This document shows, in pieces, positions 54,818 to 54,990 of a stretch of 64,000 nucleotides of DNA; position 1 is the stretch's first letter; each line of letters begins with the position of its first letter. The notes under the pieces were generated by a model. That model was not told the DNA's origin. It ran no database searches and saw only the letters and a program-made list of their open reading frames with translations. This DNA comes from Siderastrea siderea. Lineage: Eukaryota; Cnidaria; Anthozoa; Scleractinia; Rhizangiidae. The stretch lies in the NCBI GenBank assembly GCA_964030785.1, contig OZ034970.1:21460634-21524633 (forward strand), in the 5' to 3' direction. Both the position numbers and the translations under genes were made by a program.

Positions 54818-54967
54818 ATGGAAGTGTACTGTGTGAAAGAAAAGCGGCACACACCCAATGTGAAGGAGACCGAAAAAGTTGTAATCACAAAGAACAATCG
54901 AAAACTCTTGAAAGTAAAGTGCGCAAGTTGTGGAAAAATGAAATCAAGTTTTTTGCCGGGAAACTAG
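54818..54967 (+). CDS. 49-residue zinc-knuckle-like protein (frameshift zero frame)
   Basis: Begins MEVYCVKEKRHTPNV and ends VKCASCGKMKSSFLPGN. Similar in length and pattern to DUF5679-type zinc proteins of large viruses, although one of the four expected cysteines is glutamate in both copies. The start is 11 bases after the protease stop and directly follows ATATATATACA. The stop directly follows GGGAAAC. Conservation in both copies supports it as a real gene. Confidence 0.7.
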   Translation: MEVYCVKEKRHTPNVKETEKVVITKNNRKLLKVKCASCGKMKSSFLPGN

Positions 54968-54990
54968 GTGAGCCCTCCCTTGCGGAGGGC
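54958..54990 (+). promoter_or_regulatory. -1 ribosomal frameshift signal
   Basis: Slippery heptamer GGGAAAC at 54958-54964 in the correct phase (G GGA AAC), then 7 spacer bases that include the zero-frame TAG, then stem GCCCTCC (54972-54978) / GGAGGGC (54984-54990) with loop CTTGC. The -1 frame is open and encodes the PLA2 protein. The same heptamer is used at retroviral gag-pro junctions. GGTGAG here could alternatively be read as a splice donor. Confidence 0.8.

What the first reader, a model, noticed from the sequence alone, without database searches (positions are those of the whole stretch)
54958..54990. A textbook -1 programmed frameshift fuses a zinc-knuckle protein to the PLA2 capsid protein in both Polintons
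Seen in sequence: GGGAAAC in the exact zero-frame phase, the zero-frame stop within a 7-base spacer, a 7-bp GC-rich stem, and an open -1 frame into the PLA2 gene, which has no nearby ATG of its own. The arrangement is identical at 30400-30432 in the other copy. The five-base loop differs (CTTGC versus CGCGC) but the stem is unchanged. GGGAAAC is an established retroviral slippery site. I know of no described frameshift in Polintons, though my knowledge may be incomplete. It would set a fixed ratio between free zinc protein and PLA2 fusion.
Basis: partly seen in the sequence, partly recalled or inferred. Interest (0 to 1): 0.87.

Follow-up and report, generated by a model that had tools for sequence, protein, structure and literature searches.

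The report
Ribosomal frameshift signal in animal Polintons
A family of virus-like elements in an animal genome carries a strongly conserved, retrovirus-style signal that should make some ribosomes slip back one base and join a small zinc-type protein to a phospholipase.

Summary
The anatomy is real at both places: GGGAAAC in X_XXY_YYZ phase of a 49-aa DUF5679 ORF, the stop directly behind it, a 7-nt spacer, a 7-bp GC-rich stem. A scan of the window found only these two; 30 Markov control sequences gave none. One sub-claim fails: copy B has an in-frame ATG 48 nt after the stop (copy A has none until inside the PLA2 domain). In the 831-Mb host genome the 17-mer across the junction occurs 240 times. 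In 85 junctions (83 fetched by an anchor away from the junction, plus the two of the window), internal-branch changes were 0 in the heptamer, 1 in both stem arms (G-U kept), 22 in the 5-nt loop and 6 in the spacer, where TAG, TGA and TAA replace each other. Third codon positions in the stem changed 0 times in 6 columns, against 76 in 28 downstream. The stretch before copy B's ATG is constrained as codons of the -1 frame. A sister family in the same genome, without stop and 5' stem arm, reads both domains in one frame. This supports programmed -1 frameshifting (about 0.85). No translation was measured, and relatives elsewhere were seen only as proteins.

The parts
54818..54967 (+). Copy B: 49-aa DUF5679 ORF, zero frame, ending ..PGN-TAG
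   Evidence: Pfam PF18930 E 4.8e-8
54958..54964 (+). Copy B: slippery heptamer G_GGA_AAC
   Evidence: GGGAAAC in 80 of 85 junctions
54965..54971 (+). Copy B: 7-nt spacer TAGGTGA with the zero-frame stop
   Evidence: TAG 74, TGA 8, TAA 2, no stop 1 of 85
54972..54978 (+). Copy B: 5' stem arm GCCCTCC
   Evidence: 1 internal-branch change in 7 columns, G-U kept
54979..54983 (+). Copy B: 5-nt loop CTTGC, fast evolving
   Evidence: 22 internal-branch changes in 5 columns; 19 loop sequences among 85
54984..54990 (+). Copy B: 3' stem arm GGAGGGC
   Evidence: 0 internal-branch changes in 7 columns
54964..55851 (+). Copy B: -1 frame after the shift point, into the PLA2-like ORF (first ATG at 55015)
   Evidence: PF08398 E 2.6e-8; codon periodicity before the ATG
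30260..30409 (+). Copy A: 49-aa DUF5679 ORF, zero frame, ending ..PGN-TAG
   Evidence: PF18930 E 1.4e-8
30400..30406 (+). Copy A: slippery heptamer G_GGA_AAC
30407..30413 (+). Copy A: 7-nt spacer TAGGTGA with the zero-frame stop
30414..30432 (+). Copy A: stem-loop GCCCTCC-CGCGC-GGAGGGC
30406..30915 (+). Copy A: -1 frame into a short-form PLA2 ORF; first ATG only at 30616, within the PLA2 domain
   Evidence: PF08398 E 9.5e-8

Best explanation
The junction is a programmed -1 ribosomal frameshift site of the retroviral type. Ribosomes translate the 49-codon DUF5679 ORF. With GGA in the P site and AAC in the A site, some re-pair one base back on GGG and AAA, helped by the GC-rich hairpin 7 nt downstream, and go on as CTA-GGT (or AGT)-GAG.. 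into the PLA2 gene. The rest end at the stop directly behind the heptamer and release the free 49-aa protein. One mRNA would thus give a DUF5679 protein and, at a lower ratio, a DUF5679-PLA2 fusion. Shown here: the anatomy, its repetition in many copies, the constraint on heptamer, stem, stop and -1 frame, and a sister family that encodes the same fusion in one frame. Inferred: that slippage occurs, its efficiency, and that the fusion serves as a virion protein (PLA2 for membrane breach, as in parvovirus VP1, recalled).
For: (1) Anatomy and rarity. (2) Copy number: the 17-mer across heptamer, stop and spacer occurs 240 times in 831 Mb, reversed control 0. (3) Sample not chosen on the junction: of 90 sites fetched by an exact anchor at the DUF5679 start codon, 79 hold GGGAAAC 100-185 nt on; 72 of the 79 are in phase and 71 of the 72 have a stop directly behind. 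(4) Constraint on the tree of 85 junctions: internal changes heptamer 0 in 7 columns, stem arms 1 in 7 and 0 in 7, loop 22 in 5, spacer 6 in 7, PLA2 downstream 152 in 86; third positions of the -1 frame in the stem 0 in 6 against 76 in 28 downstream (0 of 20,000 random draws as low). (5) Stop identity changes on internal branches, yet 84 of 85 keep a stop. (6) The 24 nt between stem and copy B's ATG show -1-frame codon periodicity (internal changes 14/2/23 at positions 1/2/3, p 2e-4); 82 of 85 junctions have no ATG in the -1 frame between the nearest upstream stop (or the DUF5679 start) and the heptamer. (7) Nine of nine short-form rows like copy A hold GGGAAAC and have no ATG before +216 nt, next to HDVDY. 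(8) A sister family in the same genome (53 hits, control 5) lacks stop and 5' stem arm; in 14 of 18 copies looked at, DUF5679 and PLA2 lie in one frame. (9) Public proteins: by a rough sort of the 244 fetched, 63 are -1-frame ORFs running through the junction and 20 in-frame fusions, 3 of these by what look like small indels (P0003, P0010, P0054); P0012 has 378 members. (10) GGGAAAC with a 7-nt spacer and a 6-bp first stem is the layout tabulated for MPMV, SRV-1, SRV-2, JSRV and HERV-K10 (PMC3835772, Table 1 passages), there as pseudoknots; PEG10 also uses GGGAAAC (PMC2800197 passage).
Against: No translation data. The heptamer's own silent sites are not significant alone (0 internal changes in 3 columns; 2,504 of 20,000 random draws also give 0). 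Four of 85 copies read AGGAAAC and one GGGGAAC, which should slip poorly (recalled rule). On terminal branches heptamer and stem do change (5, 5 and 10 changes). Codon periodicity is weaker over the whole stretch from shift point to ATG (19/15/34, p 0.012) and, in the stretch between stem and ATG, not significant on terminal branches (12/10/21, p 0.09). No true compensatory change in the stem, only one G-U. No pseudoknot partner for the loop and a short stem whose energy is matched by 15 of 200 shuffles, so efficiency may be low. Copy B-type genes could also start at ATG 55015. DNA of relatives from other genomes could not be fetched, so conservation of the heptamer beyond this genome rests on a G-K-L/R protein motif; one relative (P0100) reads G-K-W there, which GGNAAAC cannot give.
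Confidence: 0.85

Rival explanations
1. PLA2 is made from its own start (ATG 55015, a non-AUG codon, leaky scanning or reinitiation after the DUF5679 stop) and the heptamer-stem is incidental or tunes reinitiation.
For: Copy B and most rows have the ATG (73 of 85), 48 nt after the stop in copy B.
Against: The stretch before the ATG is codon-constrained in the PLA2 frame. The ATG is absent in 12 of 85 rows, nine of them the short form, which would lose the start of the PLA2 domain. It would not explain frozen silent sites in the stem and an unchanged heptamer on internal branches.
Confidence: 0.09
2. Splicing: GGTGAG after the heptamer is a 5' splice site and an intron restores the frame.
For: AG|GTGAG in the commonest spacer looks like a donor (consensus recalled).
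Against: The GT is missing in 18 of 85 rows, among them the TAGGCGA (12) and TAAGCGA (2) spacers. The sequence after the supposed donor is under codon constraint. No cDNA was available.
Confidence: 0.02
3. Copies are dead: the frame offset is an old mutation amplified with the family, and the fusion is not made.
For: Many copies are visibly decayed elsewhere.
Against: Both frames show codon-type constraint on internal branches. The stop is kept in 84 of 85 while its identity changes. Silent sites of the stem are unchanged there while two loop columns are the fastest of the stretch listed. The same offset is seen as -1 ORFs in 63 of 244 public proteins (rough sort).
Confidence: 0.03
4. The stem-loop acts on its own (RNA processing, packaging or DNA signal) and the heptamer is chance.
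For: Stem conservation by itself does not name the function.
Against: Its distance (7 nt) from an in-phase heptamer, and the absence of its 5' arm in the in-frame family, tie it to the frame offset.
Confidence: 0.01

Closest known systems
Betaretroviral gag-pro -1 frameshift sites (MPMV, SRV-1/2, JSRV, HERV-K10)
   Same: GGGAAAC, 7-nt spacer, first stem of 6 bp (PMC3835772, Table 1 passages); upstream protein extended by the -1 frame
   Different: Those are tabulated as pseudoknots; here a plain 7-bp hairpin with a variable loop, no pseudoknot partner found. The element is a dsDNA Polinton and the product adds PLA2 rather than protease
PEG10-type domesticated -1 frameshift genes
   Same: GGGAAAC heptamer in an animal nuclear gene (PMC2800197 passage)
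   Different: Retrotransposon-derived gene; no relation of the proteins (recalled)
Predicted -1 frameshift at the 3' end of adintovirus Penton ORFs
   Same: Same wide group of elements; -1 frameshift proposed from sequence by KnotInFrame (PMC11071296 section 16)
   Different: Another gene (Penton), C-terminal extension, called hypothetical there; 'PLA2' does not occur in that text and 'phospholipase' once, for a polyomavirus VP2
In-frame DUF5679-PLA2 proteins of related Polintons (P0012, P0015, loci L112, L125 and others)
   Same: Same two domains in the same order (the DUF5679 part of P0012 scores 20.2 bits, under the cut-off of 27)
   Different: One ORF, no stop, no in-phase slippery heptamer, no 5' stem arm (DNA seen for L112 and L125; P0012 and P0015 as proteins)

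Membership tests
Programmed -1 ribosomal frameshift signal | X_XXY_YYZ heptamer in the zero-frame phase | tested here: met
Programmed -1 ribosomal frameshift signal | Stimulatory RNA structure a few nt downstream (spacer typically 6-9 nt, PMC3835772) | tested here: met
   7-nt spacer, 7-bp stem; constraint on silent sites. Stimulation itself untested
Programmed -1 ribosomal frameshift signal | -1 frame open, coding and without its own start upstream | tested here: met
   codon periodicity before the ATG, 82 of 85 without upstream ATG
Programmed -1 ribosomal frameshift signal | Conserved across related elements | tested here: met
   several subfamilies of one genome; other genomes only as proteins
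Programmed -1 ribosomal frameshift signal | Compensatory changes in the stem | tested here: inconclusive
   stem too conserved; one G-U change only
Programmed -1 ribosomal frameshift signal | Measured frameshifting | not testable with these tools
   needs reporter, peptides or footprints
Polinton/Maverick | Retrovirus-like integrase | tested here: met
   PF00665 E 4.5e-10, ORF 31616-32470 of copy A
Polinton/Maverick | A32-like packaging ATPase | tested here: met
   PF04665 E 6.3e-14, ORF 49514-50122 of copy B
Polinton/Maverick | Protein-primed DNA polymerase B | tested here: inconclusive
   ORF 58761-61544 hit only Endonuclease_7; YTDTDS motif seen in ORFs 32953-34620 and 58108-58911, its meaning recalled
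Polinton/Maverick | Terminal inverted repeats and target duplication | not tested
   not looked for
DUF5679 (PF18930) | Profile match above cut-off | tested here: met
   33.5 and 35.1 bits, cut-off 27
   only one Cys near the start and CASC later in the 49 aa; no zinc-knuckle profile among the hits
Parvovirus-type phospholipase A2 (PF08398) | Profile match above cut-off, HD motif | tested here: met
   34.4 and 32.6 bits, cut-off 23.9; HDVDY present

The most novel reading that the evidence does not exclude
Retrovirus-type -1 frameshifting is a general, long-kept device of cnidarian Polintons. A once single DUF5679-PLA2 gene was split into two frames, here by a 17-nt cassette that looks like a small inverted duplication of the 3' stem sequence and supplies stop, frame offset and hairpin at once. 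Elements switch between a fixed-ratio and an always-fused virion phospholipase, and other lineages use other slippery heptamers (G-K-L, G-K-R and F-K-L at the same place of their -1 ORFs).
Probability: 0.35. Interest if true: 0.78.

Novelty: new member of a known kind. Interest (0 to 1): 0.63.

Why it matters
Canonical -1 frameshifting is a hallmark of RNA viruses and retroelements; well-supported cases in eukaryotic dsDNA viruses are few (recalled). Here one genome offers hundreds of natural variants of one signal, plus a sister family that lacks it. That makes the question of what a virion gains from a fixed ratio of free to fused protein directly testable. It also means that a Polinton PLA2 gene annotated from its first ATG may miss an N-terminal domain.

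Tried and rejected
Splice donor GGTGAG: rejected, GT missing in 18 of 85 rows. Loop-based pseudoknot: no covarying partner. Rfam: one sub-threshold RT-11 match (22.1 bits, gathering 143.5), taken as chance. DNA of relatives elsewhere: four scans of viral contigs and one of genome contigs gave none. Protein queries of the own genome did not complete (below). Solved structures: no significant match by sequence for either ORF (best E 0.12 and 0.21). Starrett et al. 2021 (adintoviruses) is not held. A pattern count for AAAC + spacer + 5' arm with up to 2 mismatches is noisy: 694 against 226 for the control. The protein sort uses rough regular expressions: some rows are misplaced (for example P0034 and P0146-P0147 fall outside the in-frame and short-ORF groups).

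Full report
What is in the sequence. At 54818-54967 and 30260-30409 lie 49-codon ORFs that end ..CCG-GGA-AAC-TAG. Both match Pfam DUF5679 (PF18930, E 4.8e-8 and 1.4e-8), and the frame behind them matches the parvovirus-type phospholipase A2 profile PF08398. GGGAAAC occurs six times on the + strand of the window. A scan of both strands returned these two places only, and 30 Markov-1 sequences of the same length gave none. It asked for an X_XXY_YYZ heptamer (Y = A or T, Z not G) in phase of an ATG ORF of at least 30 codons, with a stop within four codons, a GC-rich hairpin 4-9 nt on and an open -1 frame of at least 60 codons; its thresholds were chosen after seeing the feature. The hairpin is part of the MFE structure of the 41-nt stretch in both copies, though 15 of 200 shuffles fold as well.

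In copy B the PLA2 frame has an ATG at 55015, 48 nt behind the stop. In copy A the segment with that ATG is missing and the first ATG is 216 nt behind the heptamer start, next to HDVDY. The small protein is DUF5679, not a CCHC zinc knuckle. A -1 frameshift had been suggested for adintoviruses, at the 3' end of Penton (PMC11071296, section 16 read). These searches gave no description of this junction: 'polinton' with 'programmed ribosomal frameshifting' (0 papers); with 'slippery' (1, the same paper); with 'frameshift' and 'PLA2' (1, a paper on an insect cell line seen only in the listing); 'adintovirus' with 'ribosomal frameshifting' (1, where the passage concerns a tombus-like RNA virus). 'DUF5679' is in no held paper. 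Of the wider searches I looked at passages of five papers; most listed papers were not opened. The held library is open-access only.

The host genome. Two relatives carry the name Porites lobata (P0211, P0217), so a cnidarian is likely but was not shown. The 17-mer GGGAAACTAGGTGAGCC occurs 240 times, its reversed control 0 times. To sample without regard to the junction I used a 23-base anchor at the DUF5679 start (438 places with up to 3 mismatches, control 1) and took 90 of the 100 listed places, all exact anchors on contigs C1-C3. Of the 90, 79 hold GGGAAAC within 100-185 nt. Of the 79, 72 are in phase; 71 of the 72 have a stop directly behind; 63 of the 71 pass a strict stem test.

Constraint. 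I dropped 7 of the 90 (L031, L056, L078, L094, L109 without a recognisable junction; L086 and L112 of the in-frame family) and added the two window copies: 85 rows, 84 distinct, median distance 0.165. The tree was built without anchor and junction columns. Internal-branch parsimony changes: heptamer 0 in 7 columns; spacer 6 in 7; 5' arm 1 in 7 (C to U facing G); loop 22 in 5; 3' arm 0 in 7; PLA2 behind the stem 152 in 86. Terminal branches carry 5, 13, 5, 20, 10 and 162. Third positions of the -1 frame inside the stem: 0 in 6 columns, against 76 in 28 downstream (0 of 20,000 random draws as low). The heptamer's three silent sites alone are not significant (2,504 of 20,000). GGGAAAC 80, AGGAAAC 4, GGGGAAC 1 of 85; stem perfect in 70 of 85; 19 loop sequences; spacers TAGGTGA 57, TAGGCGA 12, TGAGTGA 8, TAAGCGA 2, six singles. 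Stops: TAG 74, TGA 8, TAA 2, none 1. Because the stop is kept while its identity changes, ending in the zero frame appears to be selected as well. The GT needed by a splice donor is missing in 18 of 85 rows.

The -1 frame before the ATG is read. Between stem and copy B's ATG, internal changes at codon positions 1, 2 and 3 of the -1 frame are 14, 2 and 23 (p 2e-4), terminal ones 12, 10 and 21 (p 0.09). Over the whole stretch from shift point to ATG the internal ones are 19, 15 and 34 (p 0.012). Upstream of the heptamer the pattern is that of the zero frame (47 changes at its third position, 20 and 11 at the first and second). In 68 of 85 rows a -1 stop closes the frame inside the DUF5679 ORF, and 82 of 85 have no -1 ATG between that stop (or the DUF5679 start) and the heptamer. 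All nine short-form rows (copy A type) have GGGAAAC and, as first ATG, one at +216 (eight) or +309 (one). The ATG of copy B is absent in 12 of 85 rows, these nine among them. In the short form only a shift from the DUF5679 frame, or a non-AUG start, gives a whole PLA2 domain.

A natural counterpart. A sister family in the same genome mostly reads ..MP(K/E)NVEGSG.., without stop, in-phase slippery heptamer or 5' arm: 53 places with up to 2 mismatches, control 5. In 14 of 18 copies looked at (16 chosen from that list, so ascertained on the junction, plus L086 and L112 from the anchored sample) the DUF5679 start and PLA2 share one frame; in 4 they do not. In the protein database the same fusion is P0012 (378 members) and others; the DUF5679 part of P0012 scores under Pfam's cut-off. 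A rough sort of all 244 proteins fetched gave 63 -1 ORFs through the junction, 20 in-frame fusions (3 by small indels at or near it: P0003, P0010, P0054), 31 short DUF5679 ORFs (19 ending in GN) and 130 starting downstream or not placed. Only the best 120 of 1,827 and of 1,056 matches were listed. Deeper relatives show both arrangements, the -1 ORFs mostly with G-K-L or G-K-R at the junction, as GGN-AAR-C would give (one G-K-W, P0100, does not fit); their DNA could not be fetched.

Mechanism and limits. The layout (GGGAAAC, 7-nt spacer, short stem) is that tabulated for betaretroviral gag-pro sites (PMC3835772, Table 1 passages), but without a pseudoknot. I commit to -1 frameshifting at about 0.85. 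Slippage, efficiency, the fate of the DUF5679 part and its role in a particle are inferred.

Noticed in passing
29101-29820 and 53664-54806; loci: In copy B a minor-capsid-like ORF runs in frame into an adenain-like cysteine protease (names recalled from motifs; no Pfam hit); in copy A it stops early. The A-run at the join has 7 A in copy B, 8 in copy A, and 6-10 in the 14 distinct copies found among 60 loci (8 in six of them). Homopolymer decay or slippage was not decided.
   Followed up: partly
P0200, P0208, P0209, P0214, P0240, P0242-P0244: Relatives' proteins carry PLA2, rve integrase and chromodomain in one ORF (precomputed Pfam); P0200 also begins with a DUF5679-like stretch.
   Followed up: no
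23525-24664 (-) and 47928-49490 (-): Collagen-like Gly-X-Y proteins (PF01391) in both elements.
   Followed up: no
heptamer first base, L055, L073, L087, L104: AGGAAAC in four copies, a CpG-type G to A change; three have the GGCGAG spacer, so it may be an inherited variant rather than four separate decays.
   Followed up: no
9323-9943 and 16744-17937: Reverse transcriptase ORFs (PF00078) in the first part of the window.
   Followed up: no
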